Positions 2,756 through 20,305 of a DNA stretch of 20,948 nucleotides are shown here, piece after piece. The stretch is taken from positions 1 to 20,948 of the IMG/VR virus record IMGVR_UViG_3300000385_000031; one strand, written 5' to 3'. Made by a program: the position numbers and the translations under genes. Below the pieces are notes generated by a model. That model made no database searches. It was not told the origin of the DNA and worked only from the letters and a program-made list of their open reading frames with translations. The DNA is from a virus. Position 1 is the stretch's first letter. The number at the start of each line of letters is the position of its first letter.

Positions 2756-3100
2756 ATGAGCAAAGTCGACAAAATCTCTGACCCGACCCGAGGCGACAAA
2801 CCCATCCTCTCCCGTGGCCAGCTGGAGATGATCGAGGAAGACCCCACCAAGGTGGAGGTCGTGGCACGCCTGATGGGTGCAGTGAATCTCGACAACCTAT
2901 TTCGGTTCATGCAGGGCCCGGACATCAACCCGATGGCCCGGATCGAGTTCCAGAAGCTCCTCAACAAGATGGGCAAGTTGGACCCGGAGAAAGAGGATGC
3001 CAACGCCGGTGGCGGCCCGCAGGTGGTGATCAACATCACTCGCGCCAAAGACGCCGAGGAAGGCGTTACGATCGAGGGTAAGGCAGTCTCTGATGCATGA
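2756..3100 (+). CDS. terS: Terminase small subunit (by position)
   Basis: 114 residues, directly upstream of the large terminase gene and overlapping it by 8 nt. Residues about 10-75 are helical and charged (LSRGQLEMIEEDP, then a FQKLLNKMG helix), as expected for DNA-recognition and oligomerisation regions of small terminases. The tail has a G-G-G-P-Q-V-V-I-N-I-T strand-like segment. No family motif proves the role; it rests on location and size. There is no Shine-Dalgarno sequence before the ATG at 2756. The 16-bp motif ends 9 nt upstream, and a three-codon frame (ATG AAC CTA TGA, 2748-2759) overlaps the start. The next in-frame ATG (codon 25) has no better signal. The protein would select phage DNA for packaging together with the large subunit. 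Confidence 0.65.
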   Translation: MSKVDKISDPTRGDKPILSRGQLEMIEEDPTKVEVVARLMGAVNLDNLFRFMQGPDINPMARIEFQKLLNKMGKLDPEKEDANAGGGPQVVINITRAKDAEEGVTIEGKAVSDA

Positions 3101-4502
3101 GATCAATTTCGAGGTCATCGAGAGCCTGGACGGGTTCTTTTACTCGGAGAAGTTCATCTCGCTGGCGATCGGCCCTGTGGGGTCTACGAAGACAACAGCT
3201 GGGATTATGAAAATCTTGCACCATGCGGCGCAGATGGCGCCGTGCAAGGATGGCGTCCGACGATCTCGGTGCATCTGGGTGCGCAACACGCGCGAGCAGC
3301 TGCGCGACACGAGTATTCCTGACTTCCTGAAGTGGATTCCCAACGGGGTCATGGGGACGTTCCTGAAAACCGAGTACAAGTTCATCATCAAGGTGGGTGA
3401 TATTGAGTGCGAGGTGCTGTTCCGCGGCCTGGACGACCAGAACGACGTGCGTCGACTGCTGTCTTTGCAGGCGAGTTTTATCATCTTCGACGAGTTTCGC
3501 GAGATTCACCCAGACATCTACAACGCCGCCCAGGGCCGTGTGGGTCGATACCCGGACAAGATGATGAACGGGGTTGGATGTAAGACCGACGACGGGCGCA
3601 TGAACGCCCACTTGTGGGGTATGACCAACCCGCCGGACCAGGATACTTTCTGGGAAGATTTGATCTCGAACCCACCGGACAACGTACACATCACGATCCA
3701 GCCGTCTGGTCTCAGCCCTGAGGCCGATTGGACGAAGTTCCTGCCTGATGATTATTACGACAACCTGGCGCAGGGTAAGACCGAGGACTGGATCGACGTC
3801 TACATCCACGCGAAATTCGGCAAATCACTGTCTGGGCAGCCTGTGTTCAAGTCGTTTGACCGGTCTGCGCATGTCGCCAAGCATGAGATCACCCCGATGT
3901 TTTCCCAAGCCCCCCTGATAATTGGGGTGGATGCAGGGCTTACGCCGGCCGCGGTGATCGGACAGCAGGGGTACGATGGCCGCCTTGTGGTCTACGACAG
4001 CCTGATTTCTGAGGATATGGGCGCGTTACGGTTCATCCAGGAGCGTTTGAAGCCTCTGTTGACGAACAAGTTCCCTGGGCGCCAGGCCATGGTGGTGATT
4101 GATCCCGCGGCGTTCCAGCGCGTCCAGACAGATGAGCGGACGGTGGCTGACATCTACAAAAACGAGGGGTTTTTGGTCAAACCGGCGCGGACGAACTCGA
4201 TCGCTGCGCGGATCGCGGCTGTGGAGAAGTACCTGACCCGCGTGGTTGACGGGAAATACGGCCTGATCGTGGACCCCGAGCACGCGAACTCGTTGGTGCA
4301 GGCCCTGGCGGGGAAGTACCGGTATAAGATCAACACGAAGGGTGTGAAGGACGAAAAGCCGGAGAAGAGCCACCCCTGGTCGGACATATCGGACGCCTTC
4401 CAGTACCTGTGCCTGCATGCAGATGGCGGTGAGGTGTTCGGTGGGAGTGTTGGCGAAGAGCGCCGCGAAGTGCGCAGAGTGTCTGCCGGAGGGTGGACGT
4501 AG
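3093..4502 (+). CDS. terL: Terminase large subunit
   Basis: 469 residues, the packaging motor ATPase and headful/cutting nuclease. The N-terminal ATPase has a Walker A at 27-34 (GPVGSTKT; T32 stands where the canonical motif has glycine) and a Walker B at 129-134 (FIIFDE, catalytic E134). The C-terminal RNase-H-like nuclease shows three acidic motifs: GVDAG (D280), VVIDPA (D337) and SDISDAFQY (D431, D434). Length and motif order match phage large terminases. The start ATG at 3093 lies within the end of the small-subunit gene, so the two are translationally coupled. It works at the portal (5054-7087) to translocate DNA into the prohead. The identification is secure; the subfamily is not assigned. 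Confidence 0.95.
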   Translation: MHEINFEVIESLDGFFYSEKFISLAIGPVGSTKTTAGIMKILHHAAQMAPCKDGVRRSRCIWVRNTREQLRDTSIPDFLKWIPNGVMGTFLKTEYKFIIKVGDIECEVLFRGLDDQNDVRRLLSLQASFIIFDEFREIHPDIYNAAQGRVGRYPDKMMNGVGCKTDDGRMNAHLWGMTNPPDQDTFWEDLISNPPDNVHITIQPSGLSPEADWTKFLPDDYYDNLAQGKTEDWIDVYIHAKFGKSLSGQPVFKSFDRSAHVAKHEITPMFSQAPLIIGVDAGLTPAAVIGQQGYDGRLVVYDSLISEDMGALRFIQERLKPLLTNKFPGRQAMVVIDPAAFQRVQTDERTVADIYKNEGFLVKPARTNSIAARIAAVEKYLTRVVDGKYGLIVDPEHANSLVQALAGKYRYKINTKGVKDEKPEKSHPWSDISDAFQYLCLHADGGEVFGGSVGEERREVRRVSAGGWT

Positions 4503-5053: not shown

Positions 5054-7087
5054 ATGGAGCTTGGACCAGCCTTGATTCCGGTTGCTCGCGCCTCAGACAT
5101 TGAGGAAGCGGCCCGGAGAGAATCCGCTGAAAAGCAGAACACGCCGTTGATCCAAGGTCTTGCTGCCCATGTGCGGCGGCGGTGGGAGGTGATGCGTGAC
5201 CACAAACGACTGGAAATTGAGCCGCGGCTCACAGACTGCCTCCGCGCCCGAAGCATGGAGTATTCCCCTGAAAAACTGGCTGAAATCCGCGAGCATGGCG
5301 GCTCGGAGATTTTTATGGGTGTCGTCTCGACGAAATGTCGAACCGCCACAGCCTGGCTGCGGGACACTCTGCTCGGGACTGGGGATGACAAACCCTGGGC
5401 CTTGTCCGCGACGCCTGTCCCGGAAGTGCCTCCACAGGTACAAGAGCGGCTCCAGCGCATAATGGAGCAAAACCTGCAGCAGTACTATGCTGCAGGAAAC
5501 CCGCCGGTTGACCCGATGGAGCTGCAGCAGCTGGCAGCTGGCATGAAAGACACCGCGATGCGGGCCATGAAGGAAGAGGCGGATAAACGCGTCGACCGCA
5601 TGGAGAAGAAAATGGAGGACCAGCTCGTTGAGGGTGGGTTCACGAAAGCTCTGTATGAGTTCACCAACGACATCGCGACGTTCCCGTTCGCTGTCCTGAA
5701 AGGGCCGATCCCGCGTAAACGTAAGGCCATGAAGTACGTCGAAGGTGGCTTGGCCGCTGTGGATGTGCTGCGCGATGAGTGGGAGCGTGTCGACCCGTAC
5801 AAATTCTACTGGGCGCCGTGGGGAGATGACCCCCAAGAGATGCCGATCATCGAGCTCCACCACCTCACCCGCGAGGATGTTGAGGGTATGATTGACGTGG
5901 ATGGGTACGATGAGGCCGCGGTGAGGTCGATACTGTCTAATTTTGGCATCGGGATGCTCGATTGGCTGGAGAACGATGACTCCGAGATCGAAGATGCCAT
6001 GGGTAAGGACTACGACGACGCCCACGACGACCTGATTACTGCGCTCCAGCTGTGGGACTCGATCCCTGGCAAGATGCTGCTGGATTGGGGGATGGATGAA
6101 GCTGAGATTCCTGACCCGCAGATGTCCTACCCCTGCGAAGTGTGGATGGTGAACAACACTGTGATCAAGGCGGTGCTGAACTATGACCCGATGGGCCGAA
6201 AGCCGTACTATGTGACGTCATTTGAGAAAGTGCCGGGGCGCATCGACGGGAACGGCGTGGCTGACCTCTGCATGGACGCCCAGAACATGTGTAACGCGGC
6301 GGCGCGTGCGCTGTCGAACAACATGGGGATTTCGTCGGGGCCGCAGGTTGGGGTGAATATCAGCCGGTTGCCCGCCGGCGAGGACGTTTCGCAGATGTAC
6401 CCCTGGAAGATTTGGCAGTTTCGCCAGTCTGACTATAACGATGCGTCCCCGCCCATGACGTTTTTCCAGCCGCAGTCGAACTCGCAGGAGCTCATGGCGG
6501 TGTTTGACCGGTTTTTGTCGATTGCCGATGAGGTGTCAGGTATCCCGCGCTACATGACCGGTGAGCACGTGCCAGGGGCAGGGCGGACGTCGTCAGGCCT
6601 CTCGATGCTGATCTCGAACGCAGGCAAGAGCATCAAACAGGTGATCGGGAACATCGACTACGATGTCATTCAGCCGATGCTGCAGCGCCAATACCAGCGC
6701 AACATGCGTTACTCACAGGACCCCGACTTGATCGGTGATGTGCAGATCGAAGCCCGTGGCGCTATGTCCCTCGTCGTCAAGGAGGCTGAGGCGGTACGGA
6801 AGAACGAGTTCTTGCGCTTGGTCCTCGAAAGCCCGGTGGCCCAGCAGATCGTTGGCCTGCCGGGGACGGCGGAGCTCATGCGAGACTTGGCGGGCAACCT
6901 CAACACCAATGTCGACAAGCTGGTACCGACGCGAGAGCAGCTCATGCAGCAGCAACAGGCCGCTCAGATGGCCGCAATGCAGCAGCAACAGATGGGGGCT
7001 GACCCGTCCCAGAACCTCCAAGAAGACGGCAGCCAGGTCGGCGGTCGGCAGAGTAATACGATCAGCGCACGCCCCAATGGCCGATGA
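5054..7087 (+). CDS. Portal (head-tail connector) protein
   Basis: 677 residues, large as is usual for podovirus-type portals. The N-terminal region is helical. A middle portion (about 230-460) has the mixed strand/helix character of the stem and wing. Residues 508-515 (GAGRTSSG), followed by L-S-M-L-I-S-N-A-G-K, are a hallmark of this portal class. The C-terminus is glutamine-rich (about 629-648) and ends in a polar tail. The protein forms the dodecameric ring through which the terminase packages DNA and to which the adaptors (9791-11096) attach. Order after the terminase and before the scaffold supports this. Site 6 of the 16-bp motif precedes it; the ribosome site is weak (AAGAGA). Confidence 0.9.
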   Translation: MELGPALIPVARASDIEEAARRESAEKQNTPLIQGLAAHVRRRWEVMRDHKRLEIEPRLTDCLRARSMEYSPEKLAEIREHGGSEIFMGVVSTKCRTATAWLRDTLLGTGDDKPWALSATPVPEVPPQVQERLQRIMEQNLQQYYAAGNPPVDPMELQQLAAGMKDTAMRAMKEEADKRVDRMEKKMEDQLVEGGFTKALYEFTNDIATFPFAVLKGPIPRKRKAMKYVEGGLAAVDVLRDEWERVDPYKFYWAPWGDDPQEMPIIELHHLTREDVEGMIDVDGYDEAAVRSILSNFGIGMLDWLENDDSEIEDAMGKDYDDAHDDLITALQLWDSIPGKMLLDWGMDEAEIPDPQMSYPCEVWMVNNTVIKAVLNYDPMGRKPYYVTSFEKVPGRIDGNGVADLCMDAQNMCNAAARALSNNMGISSGPQVGVNISRLPAGEDVSQMYPWKIWQFRQSDYNDASPPMTFFQPQSNSQELMAVFDRFLSIADEVSGIPRYMTGEHVPGAGRTSSGLSMLISNAGKSIKQVIGNIDYDVIQPMLQRQYQRNMRYSQDPDLIGDVQIEARGAMSLVVKEAEAVRKNEFLRLVLESPVAQQIVGLPGTAELMRDLAGNLNTNVDKLVPTREQLMQQQQAAQMAAMQQQQMGADPSQNLQEDGSQVGGRQSNTISARPNGR

Positions 7088-8494: not shown

Positions 8495-9496
8495 ATGGCT
8501 GTTTTTCCCACCACTGGTGATTTCACCACCAACCCCGAATACAGCGGCGGTTTTATCCCGCAGCTCTGGTCGAACAAGCTGAACGCGAAGTTCTACGCCA
8601 ACACCATGATGACCGAGATCGCCAACACCGACTGGGAAGGCGAGATCAAAAACCAGGGTGACACGATCCGCATTCGCACTGCGCCGTCGATCACGATCAA
8701 CGACTATGCTGGCGCGGGCACGACCCTGCAGTCGGAAGTTCCGGCTCCGGTCTACACCGACATGCAGATCGACAAGGGCAAGTACTTCAGCGTCCAAGTC
8801 AACGACGTGATGGCGCACCAGGCGGACATGGACCTGATGAACATGTTCACCGACGACGCAGCCAAGCAGCTGAAGATCAAGATCGAGGAAGATTGCTTCT
8901 TCCAGTGGTTCGTGAACGATGGGGCCAACGCCGCCAACGCAGGCGCCACAGCCGGTGCTCTGTCGGGCGAGTACGACCTGGGCACGGACACCGCGCCGGT
9001 CGACCAGGCGACGCCCTCGAACATCCTCAAGACCATCCTCCGCATGTCGGCGGCCCTGGACGAGCAGAACGTTCCCGAGGAAGGTCGTTGGCTGATCATT
9101 ACGCCCTACGACCGTCAGCTGCTGATGCAGACCGACATCGCACAGGCGTACTTCACCGGTGACGCGTCGTCGACGATCCGTTCCGGCAAGATCGGCATGC
9201 TGGACCGTTTTGAGGTCTATGTGTCGAACCTGTTGCCGAAAGGCGCCGCTGGTAAGGCTCTGGTCCCCGGCTTGGCTGCAACGTCGAGCGGTGCTGACGT
9301 CACCAACGCGAAGGCGCGCCGCATGATGGTTGCAGGCACCAAGGCCTCCTGTGCCTTCGCCTCGCAGATCAGCAAGACTGAGCCGCTGCGTAACCAGACC
9401 GATTTCGGTGACATCGTCCGCGGACTGGCCGTGTATGGCCGCAAGGTCATCAAGGACGAAGCGCTGATCACATCGCTGGTTGGCTCGGCCACCTGA
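8495..9496 (+). CDS. Major capsid protein
   Basis: 333 residues with a strong TAGGAGG ribosome site. It begins MAVFPTTGDFTTNPEYSGGF. It contains the segments typical of podovirus coat proteins: an antigen-like N-arm, the stretch VPAPVYTDMQIDKGKYFSVQ (about 76-95), a long helix (MDLMNMFTDDAAKQLKIKIEED) corresponding to the HK97-fold spine helix, and later RWLIITPYDRQLLMQTD (about 192-208). The HK97 fold is inferred from role and layout; the Pfam family is not certain. It forms the icosahedral shell. Strong codon bias and a private copy of the 16-bp motif just upstream fit high expression. Confidence 0.9.
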   Translation: MAVFPTTGDFTTNPEYSGGFIPQLWSNKLNAKFYANTMMTEIANTDWEGEIKNQGDTIRIRTAPSITINDYAGAGTTLQSEVPAPVYTDMQIDKGKYFSVQVNDVMAHQADMDLMNMFTDDAAKQLKIKIEEDCFFQWFVNDGANAANAGATAGALSGEYDLGTDTAPVDQATPSNILKTILRMSAALDEQNVPEEGRWLIITPYDRQLLMQTDIAQAYFTGDASSTIRSGKIGMLDRFEVYVSNLLPKGAAGKALVPGLAATSSGADVTNAKARRMMVAGTKASCAFASQISKTEPLRNQTDFGDIVRGLAVYGRKVIKDEALITSLVGSAT

Positions 9497-9790: not shown

Positions 9791-10480
9791 ATGCCCACCG
9801 TAAAAGTCACCGACATTATCCGCCGCGTGGAGGATGTTCTTCAGGATACTAACATCCGCTGGCCTCGCCTGGAGCTGCAGAATTGGCTCAACGAGTCTTA
9901 CCTTGCGATCACGCTGTTGCGGCCGGATGCGAATGCGAAGTCCGGCACTTTTACGTGCACCGAGGGCACGCGTCAGGTCATCACATCTGAGTTCCCGTCA
10001 GCGTTGCGGCTTTTGGATGTCACCAGGAACGTGGCGGCGACGTCATCGAAAAAGGTCATCCGCTTGGTGGCCAGGAGCGTCCTCGATGACCAGCGCCCCG
10101 CATGGCACGCCGAAACCAACACGGTGGACATCCAGCACTACACGTTTGACGCCCGCCAACCCAAAGAGTTTTTCGTCTACCCGCCGGCTACAACTGCGGC
10201 CCAGATCGAGGTGGTTTACGCGGATGCGCCTGACACGCACAACCTAACCGAGGCCGAGTTGGACCCGGCCACGGGGAGTTCGGAGGTCATCAAGCTCGAT
10301 GACATCTACATGTCGCCGATTATCGACTGGGTGTTGTACCGAGCCTACTCAAAAGATGCGGAGTACGGGGCGAATGAGGCCCGCGCTTCTGCGTCCTACC
10401 AGGCATTCAACGCTGCGATCGGAGCCAAGTCTCAGACTGACTCCGCGGTGGCTCCAGCCAATGCAAGTACGGTGACCTGA
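9791..10480 (+). CDS. Head-tail adaptor protein (DUF6682-like)
   Basis: 229 residues with GGGGGA before the ATG. The N-terminus (VTDIIRRVEDVLQDTNIRWPRLELQNWLNES) is the helical start of phage adaptor proteins that join the portal. The C-terminus has DDIYMSPIIDWVLYRAYSKDAEY (about 172-194) and NEARASASYQAF, which I associate with the family DUF6682 (name from memory). It is the first connector after the capsid genes, in the usual place for the ring under the portal. The next gene begins 1 nt after its stop. Confidence 0.8.
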   Translation: MPTVKVTDIIRRVEDVLQDTNIRWPRLELQNWLNESYLAITLLRPDANAKSGTFTCTEGTRQVITSEFPSALRLLDVTRNVAATSSKKVIRLVARSVLDDQRPAWHAETNTVDIQHYTFDARQPKEFFVYPPATTAAQIEVVYADAPDTHNLTEAELDPATGSSEVIKLDDIYMSPIIDWVLYRAYSKDAEYGANEARASASYQAFNAAIGAKSQTDSAVAPANASTVT

Positions 10481-10481
10481 T

Positions 10482-11096
10482 ATGGCTAAGCGGTGGGAAG
10501 ACTTCTACAAGCACGTCCAACCGCACGTGCCAGGCTGCCCGGAGGTTGTCATTGAGCAGCACCTTCGGGACGCGGCCATAGATTTCTGCGAGCGTTCGCA
10601 GGTCTGGGTCTACCAAAGCCCGGAGTTCACCACCGAAGCAGGGCAGACTGATTATTTCGTTGAGATCGAAAGCGGGGCTCTGCTCGATAACATCCTGGCG
10701 CTCAGTGTGGATGGGCTGCCTATCAACCGTATAGCCCCTGCGCATACCCCGCGCGATATGGCTGCTCCTGACCAGCGGCCAGATAGGTACTACATATTTC
10801 GGGGCCAGGAGGTCCGGCTCCTGCCGGCTCCGGATGCGGCATACACCATTAATGCCACGGTTGCCCTGAAGCCCTCACTAAGTTCCCGCGGGGTTCCGGA
10901 CTTTGTGTTTGAGACCCACGGGCGCACGATCGCTTGCGGAGCGATTGCCTCCCTGGCGGTCATCCCCGGCAAGGAATGGACCAATCCCGACATCGCTAAC
11001 TACTACAAGGGTAAGTTTTTGCGAGAGGCTGATGACGCCGCCGGCCTGGGGGTCCGACGAACAAATTTACGCGTGCGAGGCTCTAACTTCGCATAA
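10482..11096 (+). CDS. Head-tail connector / tail tube-like protein
   Basis: 204 residues. The N-terminal helix pattern (VIEQHLRDAAIDFCERSQVW, about 23-42) and the C-terminal EWTNPDIANYYKGKFLREADDA block (about 164-185) are typical of podovirus connector proteins that lie after the first adaptor, functionally like T7 gp11 or P22 gp4-type components. The central part contains a GRTIACGAIASLAVIPGK segment. The gene begins 1 nt after the previous stop, so translation is coupled. The exact family is not certain; a structural connector role is likely from order and size. Confidence 0.7.
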   Translation: MAKRWEDFYKHVQPHVPGCPEVVIEQHLRDAAIDFCERSQVWVYQSPEFTTEAGQTDYFVEIESGALLDNILALSVDGLPINRIAPAHTPRDMAAPDQRPDRYYIFRGQEVRLLPAPDAAYTINATVALKPSLSSRGVPDFVFETHGRTIACGAIASLAVIPGKEWTNPDIANYYKGKFLREADDAAGLGVRRTNLRVRGSNFA

Positions 11097-11126: not shown

Positions 11127-11498
11127 ATGGCATTTCTCGACAACCGCGTGTTCGACAACGGCTTGACCGTTCTGGACACCGAAGCAAACGAAATTCACAT
11201 CACTTCGCAAGAGGCAACCAGCTACACCGACGCGACAAGCACAAGCAGCTTGGGCAACAGCACGTCATTGTCGATTGGCGCGCCGCAAGACCGCTCCGGC
11301 GGTGGCCGTGAAGTCGTCGTCGCAGCTATCACCGATGGATCGGTGACAGGCACCGGCACCGCAACCCATTATGCCATTGTGGACACGGTGAATAGCCGCC
11401 TGCTGGCCACCGGCTCACTGACCGCTTCTCAGTCTGTGACATCGGGCAACACCTTTACTCTGTCGTCTGTCGCAATCGGCATCCCTGATCCGGCGTAA
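11127..11498 (+). CDS. Small structural protein of the fibre module
   Basis: 123 residues with AGGAG 9 nt before the ATG. It begins MAFLDNRVFDNGLTVLDTEA, then is rich in T, S, G and A with short strands, suggesting a small beta-rich virion protein. Similar proteins beginning with F-x-N-R-V-F-D-N-G-L and V-L-D-T-E-A-N are, to my recollection, common in phages of alphaproteobacteria next to tail genes. No catalytic motif is present. It could be a decoration or fibre-attachment protein. Confidence 0.7.
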   Translation: MAFLDNRVFDNGLTVLDTEANEIHITSQEATSYTDATSTSSLGNSTSLSIGAPQDRSGGGREVVVAAITDGSVTGTGTATHYAIVDTVNSRLLATGSLTASQSVTSGNTFTLSSVAIGIPDPA

Positions 11499-11531: not shown

Positions 11532-12914
11532 ATGACCAAACTCGTCAACCGTGCAAAAATGACCACGGCCACCACTGGCACAGGGACGATCACCCTTGGG
11601 TCAGCGGTTGACGGCTATCAGACCTTTGCGGCAGCAGGGGTTTCTGACAGCGATGTGGTGCGCTACGCTATCGAGGATGGCGGCGCGTGGGAGATCGGCC
11701 TTGGCACCTACACCGCTTCTGGGACGACCCTAAGTCGATCATTGACGGAAAGTTCGACAGGATCGCTGCTCAACCTGTCTGGTGGGGCGATTGTTTTTGT
11801 ATCTGCGGCAGGGGTCGACATTCAGCAACCCCCTTCCGAGGGTGCGTTTGTCGACGGCGACAAGACAAAGTTGGACGGTATTGAGGCTGGCGCAGACGTA
11901 ACCGACACGGCCAACGTGACTGCGGCGGGTGCTCTGATGGACAGCGAGGTCACCAACCTTGCTGCGGTGAAGGCGTTCGACCCGACAGACTATGCAACGG
12001 CTGCTCAGGGCAGTCTTGCTGATACCGCCACGCAGCCGGGCGATAACATATCCACCCTGACCAACGACGCCGGTTACACGACAAATGTGGGCGACATCAC
12101 GGGTGTGACTGCTGGTAGCGGTCTCACGGGCGGTGGCACGAGCGGCAGTGTAACGCTCAACCACGCTGATACATCAACACAAGGCTCAGTAAACAACTCC
12201 GGCCCAACTGTTGTCCAAGACGTCACGCTTGATGGTTTTGGGCATGTAACGGGCCTAGGCTCTACAACGCTCGACGCTTCGAGCGTTGGCGCGCTTCCGA
12301 CGTCTGGAGGCACTGTTACTGGAGATTTATACCTAGACTCTGGCCAGATATATGGAGGATTTGGGGCTGAAACTTCAGGGGGGGTGCAAGACTGGAATGA
12401 TGTGACCAACGCTAGGTCTGGCGGCGGTCGCACACTGCTGCAGGGTAATGATGCTAACGGACCAGACGGAACGAGCACCTACTACCATTCATTTAGTTGG
12501 GAGTATTCTAGCAAAGACGGCTCTGGCAACCTGACACAGTTGGCAGTACCTTATAACGGGGTAAGCCTCCACTATAGAACAAGGTATTCATCTTCGTGGT
12601 CGTCTTGGTATAAAATTTGGTCATCTAGCAACGATGGCTCTGGCTCTGGTCTAGACGCTGACTTGTTGGATGGCCAGCACGCCTCTTCCTTCGCTACCTC
12701 TGCGCAAGGCGCTTTGGCCGACAGTGCTGTTCAACCGGGCGACAACCCTACTTTCGGCACCATTAATGCCACGACGGTCGATCTTGGAAACTGGACAGTC
12801 ACTGAAAGCGGCGGGGTACTATATTTTGCCACTGGCGGCGTCAACAAGATGAAGCTGGACAGCTCTGGCAACCTTACAGTGGTTGGTGACGTGACTGCTT
12901 TCGGGGTGATATAA
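11532..12914 (+). CDS. Tail fibre with knob-like insertion
   Basis: 460 residues. The N-terminal about 100 residues ([20 protein letters not shown]) are the virion-anchoring type found in many phage fibres. A short linker ([12 protein letters not shown]) follows, then T/G/D-rich fibre repeats ([16 protein letters not shown]). Residues about 260-370 form a distinct W/Y-rich domain resembling a pyocin-knob receptor binder, encoded by visibly more AT-rich DNA. Then come [13 protein letters not shown] (about 375-387) and a terminal strand segment ending GDVTAFGVI. Two copies of an internal repeat, [10 protein letters not shown] (about 156) and [10 protein letters not shown] (about 389), flank the central part. 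It likely contacts the host surface. Confidence 0.8.
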
Positions 12915-12915
12915 C

Positions 12916-13698
12916 ATGCCACTACCGACAACAGGACCAATTTCTCTGGCCGACATCGCTGCCGAGTTTGGTGGCAGCGCGCCGCATTCTATCAGCGAGT
13001 ATTACAGCGCTGCCGCTGGGGTCCCCTCCAACGGATCGGTCGGGATTGGTGTGTTTCGCGGCAAGTCGGCGATCACAACATTTTTTGCTAATATCACCAC
13101 GAACCAGCAAGAGTTGAACCTTTATAACTACTTGGTCAGCCAAGGCTGGGACGGCACTTCCCCGGCGGAAGTGACTATCGACGCCGGCGTTTATATCTGG
13201 TCAGACAACACGTCAGTCGCCGCACTCCATACTGGCGGTGCCTACCCCGGCGGGCTGACAATCATCAACAACGGCTTCATCATGGGCAAGGGGGGCAATG
13301 GTGGTTACCAGAACGCAGACTTGGCCACCTACACTCCGCCGACATCGGGTGGCCCTGCCATCATTTTGACCCAGGCTGTCACCATTGAGAATAGCAACGG
13401 CTATATTGGCGGCGGCGGCGGCGGCGGCGCTGGTTCTACGGGTGGGCCAATAAACATTCTTAACACCCCTGCTTACGCCCCCGGCGGCGGCGGCGCCGGC
13501 GGTGGTTTAGGGGCCCCATCCATGACAGGAAATAGTAGTACAGGCTACGCGTTAGGATCGTTTGGCCTTGGGGGCGCGTTGGGGCAGCATGGAACGGTTG
13601 CTCAAAACCTAAATACTTTCGTGGGCCATAACGAGAGCTCCCCCGGTGGTGCCGGGGGCGCGAGTGGTGCTTCGTCGCTCACAGGAACCGGCGTCTAG
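12916..13698 (+). CDS. Glycine-rich tail fibre adhesin, N-terminal part
   Basis: 260 residues, starting 1 nt after the preceding stop. The N-terminus (MPLPTTGPISLADIAAEFGG, then G-V-F-R-G-K-S) is a common virion-attachment start in phage fibres. Residues about 60-160 have a beta-rich body (VTIDAGVYIWSDNTSVAA). From about 165 on there are glycine runs (seven consecutive G; GGGGAGGG; GGAGGASG) suited to a polyglycine-II adhesin tip, as known for T4-like gp38 adhesins. It ends in SSLTGTGV at a TAG before any terminal cap. The next gene carries the expected C-terminal cap, so the two together look like one adhesin split in two. Confidence 0.75.
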   Translation: MPLPTTGPISLADIAAEFGGSAPHSISEYYSAAAGVPSNGSVGIGVFRGKSAITTFFANITTNQQELNLYNYLVSQGWDGTSPAEVTIDAGVYIWSDNTSVAALHTGGAYPGGLTIINNGFIMGKGGNGGYQNADLATYTPPTSGGPAIILTQAVTIENSNGYIGGGGGGGAGSTGGPINILNTPAYAPGGGGAGGGLGAPSMTGNSSTGYALGSFGLGGALGQHGTVAQNLNTFVGHNESSPGGAGGASGASSLTGTGV

Positions 13699-13715
13699 AC
13701 AGGAGGAAGAAAACT

Positions 13716-14195
13716 ATGGGTGGTGGTACTCCTGTAGTCACGAATTTAGGGGGAGTGTCAGGCCAAGGCGGTGGTCGCATAATGCCGGGCACGTCTACTG
13801 GGGTCGGCGAACTCATTTTGGTAAGCTCTCGCATCGACGTCGATGCGCGCGTCGACCCTGCGCAAGTAGACCGTCGGCCAACACCACCTTACGGCGCAGT
13901 AATTGATACTGCGTTTACTGCTCCTGGCGGGGGACCCGGCCAAAGTGGAGCCGGGGACGGGTACGCTATCTGGTTCGACTTAAACGCGCAGACTCCCCCT
14001 GGCGGCGTTTACCCCCTCGGCGGTGGCGGTGGCGGCTGGGGCGGCAGCGGGGGGTCAGCGACTGCCCACGACGCTTCCGGCCTCCCGACCCGCGGGCAAA
14101 ACTTAGGCGCTGCAGGCGGCAAGGCGATTGATACGAACGGCCACTCTGTGACGTGGCTTGGCGGCGCAAATCGAGTTTATGGAGCAGTTGGATGA
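13716..14195 (+). CDS. Glycine-rich tail fibre adhesin, C-terminal part
   Basis: 159 residues starting at an ATG with a very strong AGGAGG site 8 nt upstream, 17 nt after the previous stop and in a different frame. It begins MGGGTPVVTNLGG, contains glycine runs (GGGGGGWGGSGG, about 107-118) and ends with AAGGKAIDTNGHSVTWLGG and a Y-G-A-V terminus, which I know as the closing cap of long glycine-rich phage fibres. Its upstream frame (13632-13715) is open but not glycine-rich, so a simple frameshift is not evident. It is more likely translated separately. The stop overlaps the next start (ATGA). Confidence 0.75.
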   Translation: MGGGTPVVTNLGGVSGQGGGRIMPGTSTGVGELILVSSRIDVDARVDPAQVDRRPTPPYGAVIDTAFTAPGGGPGQSGAGDGYAIWFDLNAQTPPGGVYPLGGGGGGWGGSGGSATAHDASGLPTRGQNLGAAGGKAIDTNGHSVTWLGGANRVYGAVG

Positions 14196-15054: not shown

Positions 15055-16935
15055 ATGCTTGGCTTCGCCCCAATAGCTTCTGTACCCCTCGCGGATGATG
15101 GGGCGGTTGTCGTCTACGAGTTGGGCGGCAATGATGCCACTGCGGGCAACCCTGCCGTCGAGTCGTCTGCGGTTGCCCAAAAGCATGATCTTTTCTGTGT
15201 GGAGGTGGCAACTGGCCAGCCTTTTGCGGGGCCGCCCAGCATCAACCAAGAGCATAATCTTGCGACCAATGGGGTTGCAACAGGCCAACCACCGGTTCCC
15301 GGCATTACGATGTCCGAGGACGAAACGCTTAACGCAGCGCCGTTCGCTTCTGGCGCGCCCGTCGTGCAGGCGCCAAACATCGCCCAAGAGCATGATCTTA
15401 ACTTAGGGGCAATAACTACAGGCACGACGATTGCCCAAGCGTCAGAAATCGTCCAGAGCCATAACTTAGCTCTGACAGGCATCGCGGCAGGTCAGCCAAC
15501 CTTTCCAGCAATCGCGATGGCAGAGGATGAGACTTTTGTCGCCGCCCCGATACCCGCTGGGCAACCGATTCTTGGTACCCCTGAGATTACCCAAGCGCAT
15601 GACCTAACGCTTGCGTCTATCGCACTTGGGCAACCTGTTGTTGGTGCTTCTGGCATTACCCAAGATCACGACCTGAGCTTTGACTCTACCACCACGGGTC
15701 AGCCGAGTGTCGGCGACGGCAGCATGGTTGAGACTGTCCCTCTTTTTGGCGATGGCATTACCGCGGGTCAGGCGGCTGTCGGCGATTCTGCTATTGAGCA
15801 GGAACACCCCTTCAGTGCTGATGACATTACTGTAGGCCAGCCGACCATCCTTGGCATTACGATGTCGGAAAAGGAGACCCTCAACGCCGACCCGCTTTCT
15901 GCTGGCGTTCCAGGGTTTGAATCTCCAGAAATTGGCCAAGGCCACAAACTTGGTGCGGAACGTATCACCGTTAGTTCACCCACCGCAGGCGCTTTCTCGG
16001 TTGCACAGGAACATAAGCTGCTGGGTAGCGGTGTCAGCTCTGGTGCACTGCTCGTTGGAACCTCCACCCCGAAACAAGAACACAATCTTTTTGCCGCCAA
16101 TACCGCGACCGGCGAGGCTGATGTTTCTGCTGCCACGATGCAGGAAGATGAGACCCTGTTTGCCGGTCCAACCACCGCCGGTGCGCCGACTCTTATTTCA
16201 CCGGACATCACGCAAGAGCACCAGCTGGCGCTGCAAGCAATTGAAGCGGCTCAGCCAGTCGCCAGCACACTTGCTATCGAGCAAGAGCAGTTATTCGTAG
16301 GCAACAACGTTACGACTGGCCAGCCGATCGCCCCCGGCATTTCCATGTCGGAAGAAGAGACGTTCAACGCCGACCCGCTTGTCTCAGGCGTTCCATCGGT
16401 CGGCACAGTTTCGCTCACCCAGGACCACACTCTCGTTTCTGAGCCGGTCACCACAGAACAACCTACCGCAAGTGTTTCGCCTATTACCCAGAAACACCAA
16501 CTGGGCTGCGTGGGTGTTGACACGGCCGAGCCCGGTGTTGGCGACGGCAGTCTGCACATCACTTACGGGTTCGAGGCGGCGAACATTAACGCTGCCCCGT
16601 CAAATGTACCCAGCGGCACATTGACCCAGCGGCATCATCTGGGCGCAGTTGAGGTTCTAGGTGCAAACCCGTCGATCGAACAGTTGCACGTGGTTGTGGA
16701 GGTCCACTTTGAGGCCGCGCACATTACTGCGCTGGACCCAACCGTTACTGCTGCTTTTTACAATGCGACCCTTCGCCGGCGTGCCCTACTGGGGGCCTTT
16801 GACGGCCAATCCCACGTTCACTTTCGAGACACCGTCAATTCGGCCACCTTACCGACCACGGCTAATTCGGCCCGTACACGGACAACCGTAAACCTCGTCA
16901 GCGTTACCAGCGATTGGAAAAGCACGGCTGCGTAG
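15055..16935 (+). CDS. Fibre protein with 23 tandem 23-residue repeats
   Basis: 626 residues with GGAG 6 nt before the ATG. After a 41-residue head, residues 42-570 consist of 23 units of exactly 23 residues with no insertion or deletion. Most units (type A) have Q-x-H-x-L at the start, then an I/V position, T-G-Q-P and a final I-x-Q turn. Others (type B) start E-x-E-T-L/F and carry D-P-L and S-G-V-P. Such regular H-x-L / T-G-x-P repeats are known to me from alphaproteobacterial phage tail proteins and fit a rigid beta-solenoid or beta-helical shaft. The last 56 residues (571-626) are unrelated, with R-R-R and T/S-rich text, and may cap or trimerise the shaft. It is the longest fibre protein complete in the window. 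Confidence 0.8.
   Translation: MLGFAPIASVPLADDGAVVVYELGGNDATAGNPAVESSAVAQKHDLFCVEVATGQPFAGPPSINQEHNLATNGVATGQPPVPGITMSEDETLNAAPFASGAPVVQAPNIAQEHDLNLGAITTGTTIAQASEIVQSHNLALTGIAAGQPTFPAIAMAEDETFVAAPIPAGQPILGTPEITQAHDLTLASIALGQPVVGASGITQDHDLSFDSTTTGQPSVGDGSMVETVPLFGDGITAGQAAVGDSAIEQEHPFSADDITVGQPTILGITMSEKETLNADPLSAGVPGFESPEIGQGHKLGAERITVSSPTAGAFSVAQEHKLLGSGVSSGALLVGTSTPKQEHNLFAANTATGEADVSAATMQEDETLFAGPTTAGAPTLISPDITQEHQLALQAIEAAQPVASTLAIEQEQLFVGNNVTTGQPIAPGISMSEEETFNADPLVSGVPSVGTVSLTQDHTLVSEPVTTEQPTASVSPITQKHQLGCVGVDTAEPGVGDGSLHITYGFEAANINAAPSNVPSGTLTQRHHLGAVEVLGANPSIEQLHVVVEVHFEAAHITALDPTVTAAFYNATLRRRALLGAFDGQSHVHFRDTVNSATLPTTANSARTRTTVNLVSVTSDWKSTAA
15178..16764 (+). repeat. 69-bp tandem repeat array coding the fibre shaft
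   Basis: Twenty-three consecutive units of 69 bp encode residues 42-570 of the fibre protein. Sequence identity between most units is low at DNA level, but B-type units keep long shared stretches near 15301, 15853 and 16336 (for example GGCATTACGATGTC). This array is a likely target for recombinational change of shaft length. Confidence 0.75.
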
Positions 16936-17019: not shown

Positions 17020-17343
17020 ATGGCGTTCACGATCAAACAAGGCGACACATCGCCAGCGCTACTGGCCGACTTAGAGACGCCGTCCCGAGAACCTGCTCAA
17101 CTGGTAGGTGCGACCGTCCTATTTCACATGCGCAGCTCCCGGCCTAATGCTCAGCCCCTGGTGGCACCCGTGGTTGTCGTGGACGCCGAACTCGGCCGTG
17201 TTCGTTACGACTGGCAGCCAGAGGATACTGCGGTGTCGGGAGACTTTGAGGCGGAGTTTGAGGTCACCTATGCGGACGGCTCTATCGAGACGTTCCCTAA
17301 TGAGGGGTACATTGAAATCTTCATCCCGGAGCAGATTGCATGA
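17020..17343 (+). CDS. BppU-N-like immunoglobulin-fold tail protein
   Basis: 107 residues with AGGAGG 6 nt before the ATG. The pattern (IKQGDTSPALLADLETPSRE, L-V-G-A-T-V-L-F-H-M-R, R-V-R-Y-D-W-Q-P-E-D-T, F-E-A-E-F-E-V-T-Y-A-D-G) matches the N-terminal domain of BppU-type baseplate/fibre-holding proteins. These are beta-sandwich modules that attach fibres to a tail. Here it stands alone as a small protein. The following start overlaps its stop (ATGA). It lies at the join between the fibre and lysis genes and is probably a virion protein. Confidence 0.8.
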   Translation: MAFTIKQGDTSPALLADLETPSREPAQLVGATVLFHMRSSRPNAQPLVAPVVVVDAELGRVRYDWQPEDTAVSGDFEAEFEVTYADGSIETFPNEGYIEIFIPEQIA

Positions 17344-18539: not shown

Positions 18540-18705
18540 AGAGCCGCTATTTTGTGATGTCGAAGAGCCGCGTAAGTTCTCGCAAGAAGAGCTCGATTGG
18601 CGAGCTGAAAACGCCCCGTGGAACTTGCGGCGAGACTACAAAACAAACCTGACTTGGGACCGCGAGTGTCCCGGAGGGCCGAACAATGCCAGTCGTGTCG
18701 ATTAA
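18457..18705 (+). CDS. Outer-membrane lipoprotein spanin, Rz1-like
   Basis: 82 residues starting at a GTG at 18457 (GGAG about 8 nt upstream), inside the Rz-like gene in another frame and running 166 nt past its stop. Residues 1-18 are a signal segment and LLTGC (15-19) is a lipobox, so C19 should be lipidated. The mature part has C33 and a conserved-looking E-L-D-W-R-A-E-N-A-P-W-N-L-R-R-D-Y block (about 44-60). A nested reading frame with a lipobox beside an inner-membrane spanin is the classic Rz/Rz1 architecture. It is longer than most Rz1 proteins and not especially proline-rich. Confidence 0.8.
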   Translation: MKWTTFLMTSCTMFLLTGCGQKEPAAIEEPLFCDVEEPRKFSQEELDWRAENAPWNLRRDYKTNLTWDRECPGGPNNASRVD

Positions 18706-20305
18706 ATCTTTTGGGGGTATCGCGCCAGCCGTCCCACCGCGCTATCTTAAAGATACGCAGGCTCAAGTTGCGCTTAATTGCCCAGTCTTTACAGGGAGCA
18801 TACAGCCACTGCCAGATGTCACACCGTCGATTCTCACGCTGCCAAAGTCCGGAACCCCGGAAACCATATACCGTTTCGGACAGGATACTGTCTCTGATAC
18901 ACAGTATTGGTTCCACTGGACTTCTGATGTGGATGTTTGCCGAAGCCAGATTGCCGGTGACACATCCGAGTGGACATTTTTTACCGGGGACGGGGAGCCG
19001 AAAGCAACTTACGCCGCCTTGGCCACAAGTGGATCAGACTACCCCTCTGCGGCGCGCCGCCTCGGACTACCAGCTCCGCCGTCTGCAGCGATTGCCACGG
19101 AGAACGGAACTGCAGACGATACCGCAGTGCCGGAAACGCGTGTTTACACGTACACGTGGGTGAGCAAAGAAGCCGGGTTTGAGATTGAGTCAGCGCCCGC
19201 GCCTGCCTCGCTCGATGTGACGGTTACTCCTAACCAATCGGTCACGGTCAACGGGTTTGCTCCGATCCCGGCGGGCGCCTACAACATCACGCATCTGCGC
19301 ATTTATCGTTCTGTGAGCGGGGTGTTTTTGTTTGTGGACGAGATCGCTGTGTCTGCGTCGAGTTACGAGGACAGCGTTGCGGCTGATGCGTTGGGTGAAG
19401 AGCTCCCATCTTTGTATTGGTCCCAGTCGCCCGATGACCTGCAGGGGCTCACCAACATGCCGAACGGCATGATGGCCGGGTTTGTTGGCCGCGACGTTTA
19501 TTTCTGCGAACCGTACAGACCCTACGCGTGGCCTGAGACTTACATCCAAACGGTCGACTACCCGGTAGTGGGTTTAGGCCGCATGGATACTACCTTGGCT
19601 GTTCTCACCACTGGCGTTCCGTACCTGATGCAGGGCGCGCATCCGGACTCAGTCGCCGTTGTCAAATCTGACCTCGAGCAGGCTTGCGTGTCCAAGCGGA
19701 GCATCGTGAGCTTCGGCAGCTCTGTCGTCTATGCCGCCCCTGATGGGCTTATGATGCTGTCCCCCGGTGGTTCTCAGATCATCACGGAAGACTTGTTCAA
19801 CTACAAGCAGTGGCAGGCATACTTTAAGCCGGAGTCGATCCACGCCTATGCGCATGACAACCAGTATATCGCGTTCTACGACACGGGCACGACCCAGGGC
19901 GGCTTTATTCTCGACATGTCGACCCGGCAGTTCATTCTACACGACATCTACGCCACCGCGGGGTTCCGCGACACGCAGCGGGACAAGCTGTTTTTGGCGT
20001 TCGATGATCGGTCGCTGCGGACATGGTACGAAGGCGACCCAAAGCAGTATATTTGGCGGTCCAAAAAGTTCACGATGCCGCAGATCATGGGGTTTTCATG
20101 TGCGCAGCTAGAAGCTGAGGCCTACCCGATGACTCTGAGCATCATCGCCGACGGGGCGGTTGTCCACACCCAAACCGTGACATCTCGAAACCCGTTTCGG
20201 TTGCCGTCCAAGGTGGGTCGCGACTGGGAGGTGCAGATCGAGGGTAGCAGTGAGGTTTTCGCTGTCCACATGGCCACATCAATGTCGGAGCTTGCCGGTG
20301 GCTAA
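18686..20305 (+). CDS. Beta-propeller-like tail protein (P22 gp10-type)
   Basis: 539 residues with GGAGG 9 nt before the ATG; the start overlaps the spanin gene by 20 nt. It begins MPVVSIKSFGGIAPAVPPRY, a typical start for podovirus tail hub/nozzle proteins. Repeated blade-like segments follow: VYTYTWVSKEAGFEIESAP, HLRIYRSVSGVFLFVDEIA, NGMMAGFVGRDVYFCEPYRPYAWP, SFGSSVVYAAPDGLMMLSPG, DNQYIAFYDTG, then KLFLAFDD. This pattern is characteristic of the DNA-stabilising/tail-hub beta-propeller class, which plugs the connector and anchors the tail tip. Length is somewhat above P22 gp10. The function is inferred from pattern and from order after the connectors and fibres. Confidence 0.65.
   Translation: MPVVSIKSFGGIAPAVPPRYLKDTQAQVALNCPVFTGSIQPLPDVTPSILTLPKSGTPETIYRFGQDTVSDTQYWFHWTSDVDVCRSQIAGDTSEWTFFTGDGEPKATYAALATSGSDYPSAARRLGLPAPPSAAIATENGTADDTAVPETRVYTYTWVSKEAGFEIESAPAPASLDVTVTPNQSVTVNGFAPIPAGAYNITHLRIYRSVSGVFLFVDEIAVSASSYEDSVAADALGEELPSLYWSQSPDDLQGLTNMPNGMMAGFVGRDVYFCEPYRPYAWPETYIQTVDYPVVGLGRMDTTLAVLTTGVPYLMQGAHPDSVAVVKSDLEQACVSKRSIVSFGSSVVYAAPDGLMMLSPGGSQIITEDLFNYKQWQAYFKPESIHAYAHDNQYIAFYDTGTTQGGFILDMSTRQFILHDIYATAGFRDTQRDKLFLAFDDRSLRTWYEGDPKQYIWRSKKFTMPQIMGFSCAQLEAEAYPMTLSIIADGAVVHTQTVTSRNPFRLPSKVGRDWEVQIEGSSEVFAVHMATSMSELAGG

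What the first reader, a model, noticed from the sequence alone, without database searches (positions are those of the whole stretch)
15055..16935. Fibre shaft of 23 repeats, each exactly 23 residues
From residue 42 to 570 the 23-residue period never slips, although the units have diverged strongly in sequence. This implies strict structural selection on repeat length, as in a solenoid where each unit is one coil.
Basis: seen in the sequence. Interest (0 to 1): 0.65.

Follow-up and report, generated by a model that had tools for sequence, protein, structure and literature searches.

The report
Marine phage fibre with 23-residue rungs
This gene makes a long virus protein built from 24 copies of a 23-residue unit whose length is kept exactly although its sequence drifts, and it belongs to a widespread, undescribed family of marine phage proteins that change length by whole units, most likely the shaft of a fibre on the virus particle.

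Summary
The 626-residue protein (15055-16935) holds 24 units of exactly 23 residues, residues 19-570 (one unit more than claimed), with no slip, although units are only 25% identical. It is no oddity: 118 distinct family members, nearly all from uncultured phage contigs plus one isolate (Roseobacter phage CRP-6 gp57), keep the same register (1845 of 1910 unit steps are exactly 23), while copy number runs from 7 to 34. Close relatives differ by whole units only: one pair is 100% identical except for one extra unit; others differ by 2 or 4. The gene forms a two-gene cassette with a BppU_N-domain protein directly downstream (101 of 108 loci), among virion genes of otherwise unrelated phages. The window protein has no Pfam or PHROGs hit and no convincing PDB match. 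Virion presence is untested. Side finding: 40 loci carry a collagen lysyl-hydroxylase/glycosyltransferase-like gene, tied to collagen-like fibre genes.

The parts
15055..16935 (+). 23-residue-repeat protein gene (626 aa), whole
15055..15108 (+). N-terminal leader, residues 1-18 (MLGFAPIASVPLADDGAV), of the family pattern MLGFxPLASAPLxDDG; candidate attachment segment
   Evidence: similar start in many relatives; first unit starts at residue 14-23 in all 94 complete genes
15109..16764 (+). 24 tandem units of exactly 23 residues (residues 19-570)
16765..16932 (+). C-terminal tail, residues 571-626, ending STAA; relatives end in short Asn-containing repeats and often NxAA
17020..17343 (+). 107-aa BppU_N-domain protein, partner gene of the cassette
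   Evidence: Pfam PF10651 E 1.9e-7; directly downstream of the repeat gene in 101 of 108 related loci
11532..12914 (+). tail fibre protein with a widespread fibre N-terminal domain; relatives lie upstream of the repeat gene in many loci
   Evidence: PHROG 24456/892 tail fiber; BLAST matches upstream in 38 of 117 loci
11127..11498 (+). 123-aa protein (PHROG 240 'head protein') that precedes the fibre genes, also upstream in 29 of 117 loci

Best explanation
A virion fibre (or whisker) shaft whose length is set by the number of 23-residue rungs. A short N-terminus (about 18 residues) probably anchors the protein to the particle, possibly through the 107-aa BppU_N protein encoded next to it. Each unit (hydrophobic at positions 5, 10, 17 and 22; T12-G13-x-P15; almost no Lys, Arg, Cys or Trp) adds one structural rung. 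A short Asn-rich C-terminus may cap the fibre. Whole units are gained or lost by recombination; an indel of any other size breaks the register and is purged. Because a single chain is not predicted to fold, the shaft is most likely a homo-oligomer (probably a trimer) in which the rungs of different chains interlock. Shown: the register, its conservation, whole-unit length changes, the BppU_N pairing, the place among virion genes. Inferred: presence in the virion, oligomer, anchor and cap roles.
For: Register 23 in 1845/1910 steps over 118 distinct proteins, 7-34 units, first unit at residue 14-23 in every complete gene. L033 and L036 are 100% identical over 468 aa apart from one extra 23-aa unit; L116/L118 differ by 92 aa, L101/L082 by 46 aa, with no other gap. 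Positions 5, 10, 17, 22 are V/I/L/M/F in 99, 98, 93 and 90% of 2028 units, K+R at most 3% at any position. BppU_N partner in 101/108 loci while the window's portal, capsid and terminase match nothing in the flanks. Neighbours are tail fibres, tail-fibre assembly chaperone, portal, head protease, capsid and tape measure genes. Units with ExE at positions 1-3 avoid being neighbours (15 seen, 29.3 +/- 3.2 expected, 0 of 1000 shuffles, 18 divergent representatives), which suggests that successive units touch. AlphaFold2 finds no intrachain fold.
Against: No proteomics or microscopy shows the protein in a virion. No sequence match to any solved fibre. Low pLDDT can also mean disorder or an alignment that is too shallow. 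Between-unit couplings are weak and confounded by shared ancestry of units. In the window the gene lies between fibre genes and lysis genes, which alone would also fit a non-virion product.
Confidence: 0.55

Rival explanations
1. Monomeric beta-solenoid: each 23-residue unit is one coil, stacked along one chain.
For: Fixed unit length with drifting sequence, regular hydrophobic positions, ExE units avoiding each other as neighbours, some coupling between positions 12-18 of consecutive units (z about 2.5-4.6).
Against: AlphaFold2 gives no intrachain strands with an 82-sequence alignment (mean pLDDT 47, pTM 0.20) and no confident fold alone, although monomeric solenoids with such alignments are normally predicted well (own knowledge). 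Loops of solenoids usually tolerate small insertions (own knowledge).
Confidence: 0.2
2. Flexible, largely disordered acidic tether with periodic sticky motifs, for example a linker between particle and a receptor-binding or decoration protein.
For: Low pLDDT throughout; rich in T, S, A, G, D, E and poor in K, R, W, C.
Against: A disordered linker would not need a register of exactly 23 with four nearly invariant hydrophobic positions and G13/P15 over 118 proteins; tethers usually change length freely, as the C-terminal tails here do (23-112 aa).
Confidence: 0.15
3. Not a virion part: a secreted or cell-surface phage product (moron) that happens to sit in the structural region.
For: Virion presence is unproven; in the window it is followed by lysis-type genes (XhlA-like, endolysin-like, spanin-like).
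Against: Recurrent place among head, tail and fibre genes in very different phages, same strand, tightly coupled to a BppU_N protein.
Confidence: 0.08

Closest known systems
Roseobacter phage CRP-6 gp57 (QBQ72781.1, hypothetical protein)
   Same: Same family: 15 units of 23, similar N-terminal pattern, BppU_N gene (gp56) directly downstream
   Different: 25% identity over the matched pieces (71% of the query); CRP-6 carries a collagen-like fibre and a PLOD-like enzyme upstream that the window lacks; genome otherwise unrelated
Trimeric phage and viral fibre shafts (triple beta-spiral of adenovirus, reovirus and PRD1; triple beta-helix of T4 gp5), as a way of working
   Same: Shaft of short repeats with Gly/Pro turn and spaced hydrophobics; length set by repeat number; single chain not expected to fold alone (own knowledge)
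   Different: No Pfam or PDB sequence match; the unit of 23 with the motif ITTGxPxV...I.QxHxL is not one of their repeats as far as I know
BppU of lactococcal phages (Pfam PF10651, BppU_N)
   Same: The downstream partner protein carries this N-terminal domain
   Different: Here the domain stands alone as a 107-aa protein and the shaft is a separate gene
Rhizobium phage RHph_TM3_14A EVB41_008 (QIG67473.1)
   Same: A short-repeat protein of about 21-residue units with an xxEGxDVPxFxV core, downstream of the capsid and virion structural genes of the phage whose portal is closest to the window's
   Different: Units of about 21, few copies, no score with the 23-residue profile; homology not shown

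Membership tests
23-residue-repeat family defined here (CRP-6 gp57 type) | tandem units of 23 with hydrophobics at 5, 10, 17, 22 and TGxP at 12-15, in one register | tested here: met
   24 units, no slip; family profile
23-residue-repeat family defined here (CRP-6 gp57 type) | BppU_N-domain gene directly downstream | tested here: met
   17020-17343, PF10651 E 1.9e-7, 84 bases after the repeat gene
Monomeric beta-solenoid | coils stacked within one chain | tested here: inconclusive
   AlphaFold2 shows no periodic intrachain strands, which speaks against it, but confidence is low, so it is not a disproof
Trimeric fibre shaft | homotrimer with strands shared between chains | not testable with these tools
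   only single chains could be predicted
Trimeric fibre shaft | sequence match to a known shaft family (Pfam, PHROGs, PDB) | tested here: not met
   no Pfam or PHROGs hit for the window protein; no convincing PDB profile hit, best E 0.098
Virion protein | present in purified particles | not testable with these tools
   no proteomics of a carrier phage was found; passages on CRP-6 in its paper (PMC6918029) do not mention the gene
Leucine-rich repeat (also period 23) | LxxLxLxxNxL core with leucines at fixed places | tested here: not met
   only a chance-level PDB hit (4u08, E 0.098); position 13 is Gly where an LRR has Leu
Collagen-like fibre | (Gly-X-Y)n | tested here: not met
   Gly is conserved once per 23 residues

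The most novel reading that the evidence does not exclude
A new class of viral fibre fold: an interlocked homo-oligomeric shaft with a strictly invariant 23-residue rung, used as a mobile, length-adjustable cassette (shaft plus BppU_N adaptor) by many unrelated marine phages, with an acidic/neutral unit alternation rule that governs how successive rungs pack.
Probability: 0.35. Interest if true: 0.7.

Novelty: new variant of a known kind. Interest (0 to 1): 0.52.

Why it matters
An undescribed family, present in more than a hundred viral contigs and in an isolate of a phage group reported to be widespread in the ocean (CRP-6 type, PMC6918029), gives a clean natural series of lengths: 7 to 34 equal units, with pairs that differ by a single unit. 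If it is a fibre, reach towards the host can be related directly to copy number, and the repeat would be a ready-made ruler or scaffold for protein design. It also gives a testable role to a gene now annotated as hypothetical.

Tried and rejected
AlphaFold2 on the whole protein without an alignment: pLDDT 34, unusable. Foldseek in the viral library with the low-confidence model: best E 1.3, meaningless. PDB profile search: only chance hits; the LRR protein 4u08 shares only the period of 23. PHROGs hits of some relatives (5070, 9274, 7964, 13866, 13928) are weak, of unknown function and scattered; Pfam and NCBIfam hits are single-member matches to unrelated families. Two scans of bacterial genomes found no relative, so no prophage copy was seen; the patterns may miss divergent ones. 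Idea that the PLOD-like enzyme modifies the 23-residue repeats: not favoured, because Lys is 0.15-0.55% of the repeats while it fills 28.5% of Y positions of the collagen-like fibres that accompany the enzyme. A 69-residue super-period, strongest in the window's self-comparison, is not general (lag 3 not enriched). A pairwise gap census at 40% identity and above is noisy but peaks at 23 (805 of 2380 gaps are multiples of 23; uniform expectation 103). Paper searches for a 23-residue phage repeat and for solenoid repeat tail fibres found nothing on this family.

Full report
CHECK OF THE OBSERVATION. The ORF at 15055-16935 is complete and codes for 626 residues. Its self-comparison peaks only at multiples of 23 (lags 23 to 184, mean BLOSUM62 score +0.60 to +0.79; shuffles -0.73 +/- 0.09, maximum -0.29). 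A slip-tolerant profile parse gives 24 units, residues 19-570, with every step exactly 23 (score 557; shuffles at most 9.7). Units average 24.7% identity (7.6% when shuffled) and 42% at DNA level; Tandem Repeats Finder reports nothing there. So the array is old and its register has been held while the sequence drifted.

RELATIVES. Scans of IMG/VR with four family members, plus Roseobacter phage CRP-6 gp57 as the only clear isolate among 50,697 phage records, gave 118 distinct proteins, 94 of them complete. In them 1845 of 1910 unit steps are exactly 23; most of the others fit one unit of 22, 24 or 25 (steps 45, 47, 24, 25). Copy number in complete genes is 7 to 34, most often 20; the first unit begins at residue 14-23 in all; the C-terminal tail varies freely from 23 to 112 residues and so acts as an internal control for the fixed unit length. 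Close pairs show how length changes: L033 and L036 are identical over 468 residues apart from one extra 23-residue unit, within a run of units that are identical at DNA level; L116/L118 (87% identical) differ by 92 residues, L101/L082 (80%) by 46, and none of these pairs has another gap. Whole-unit change by recombination between units keeps register by mechanism; the absence of other indels at 13-20% divergence, and in arrays whose units are too divergent to recombine readily, such as the window's, points to selection.

THE UNIT. From 2028 units: [QE]-x-[HE]-x-[LF]-x-[ATG]-x-x-[ILV]-x-T-G-x-P-x-[VLI]-x-x-x-x-[IMF]-x. Positions 5, 10, 17, 22 are V/I/L/M/F in 99, 98, 93 and 90%; G13 77%, P15 77%, T12 65%. 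Lys and Arg together never exceed 3% at any position. Two main unit types occur, QxH and ExE (often MSEEETF), tied together by the strongest coupling found, position 22 with position 3 of the next unit (z 18). ExE units avoid being neighbours: 15 adjacent pairs against 29.3 +/- 3.2 expected, 0 of 1000 shuffles, in 18 divergent representatives. One lineage (L055/L067) breaks this rule with a run of ExE units. This is indirect evidence that successive units lie against each other.

SURROUNDINGS. The window is a fragment of a podovirus-like genome: terminase large subunit 3093-4502, portal 5054-7087 (closest to Rhizobium phage RHph_TM3_14A, 36%, then the HMO-2011/CRP-1 group), capsid 8495-9496, structural proteins 9791-11096, fibre genes 11532-14195, then the repeat gene, the BppU_N protein 17020-17343, XhlA-like, endolysin-like and spanin-like genes, and an internal-virion-type protein 18686-20305. 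In 101 of the 108 related loci that hold the end of the repeat gene, the BppU_N gene follows it directly, while the window's terminase, portal and capsid match nothing in the flanks of the relatives (the flanks are at most 6 kb in most loci). In other phages the pair lies between portal and fibre genes on one side and head protease, scaffold, cement and capsid genes on the other (31 of 69 loci with enough flank have head genes downstream; CRP-6), or ahead of tail genes including the tape measure. So shaft plus BppU_N behaves as a cassette of the virion region that is carried by different phages. A stand-alone BppU_N protein also follows a laminin-G-domain protein in Halorubrum virus HRTV-25 and lies between terminase and portal in HGTV-1, which hints at an attachment near the head or neck rather than only at the tail tip.

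STRUCTURE. AlphaFold2 gave no usable model alone (pLDDT 34), nor for the last ten units plus tail with 82 sequences in the alignment (pLDDT 47, pTM 0.20, no strands). The alignment is not the obvious cause: rows of the near-identical earlier alignment are 99.8% in phase with the query. This argues against a stable monomeric solenoid and fits either an interlocked oligomer or a disordered tether. The fixed register and four near-invariant hydrophobic positions argue against disorder. Hence the best explanation, at 0.55: a homo-oligomeric fibre shaft with one rung per unit, length set by copy number, N-terminal anchor, BppU_N protein as probable adaptor. Oligomer, anchor and virion presence are inferred.

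COMPARISON WITH THE KNOWN. Pfam, PHROGs and NCBIfam have no hit for the window protein, and the PDB none of weight. CRP-6 gp57 is annotated as hypothetical, and the passages on CRP-6 in its paper do not mention it (PMC6918029). It works like other repeat-built phage fibre shafts, as far as can be told, but cannot be filed under any of them; I rate it a new variant of a known kind.

Noticed in passing
L052:1745-3505, L026:10130-11899 (CRP-6 gp58) and 38 further loci: A ~585-aa fusion of PLOD-type glycosyltransferase, GT25 and 2OG-Fe(II) oxygenase (collagen lysyl hydroxylase/glucosyltransferase-like) lies just upstream of the repeat gene in 40 of 117 loci. It goes with collagen-like (GXY)n fibre genes (18 of 20 enzyme-bearing loci with 4 kb upstream, 0 of 35 others, Fisher p 1e-12), whose Y position is Lys in 28.5% and X never (GAKGQKGE), like the animal hydroxylysine sites: these phages may hydroxylate and glycosylate their own collagen-like fibres.
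   Followed up: partly
12916-14195: Glycine-rich, Gp38-adhesin-like fibre (weak PF05268) runs in one frame to 13698 and seems to go on in another frame from about 13716: a frameshift (assembly error or real) may split it.
   Followed up: no
L148:20078-20626 (Rhizobium phage RHph_TM3_14A EVB41_008): A different short-repeat protein of about 21-residue units (xxEGxDVPxFxVTSTTLLS) downstream of the virion structural genes; possibly an analogue or distant relative.
   Followed up: no
L058, L077, L079, L086, L092, L093, L100: Some long members carry inserts of roughly 110-290 residues between units of the array, as if a domain were plugged into the shaft.
   Followed up: no
L146:6992-7330 (HRTV-25 gp8); L147:3250-3603 (HGTV-1 gene 6): Stand-alone BppU_N proteins 38-44% identical to the window's occur in haloarchaeal tailed viruses beside a laminin-G protein, terminase or portal.
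   Followed up: partly
16765-16932 and C-termini of relatives: C-terminal tails of relatives hold a second, shorter repeat of about 9-11 residues with Asn (e.g. NAVVLQNTNPRNSAVLSNTGRNRAA) and often end in NxAA.
   Followed up: no
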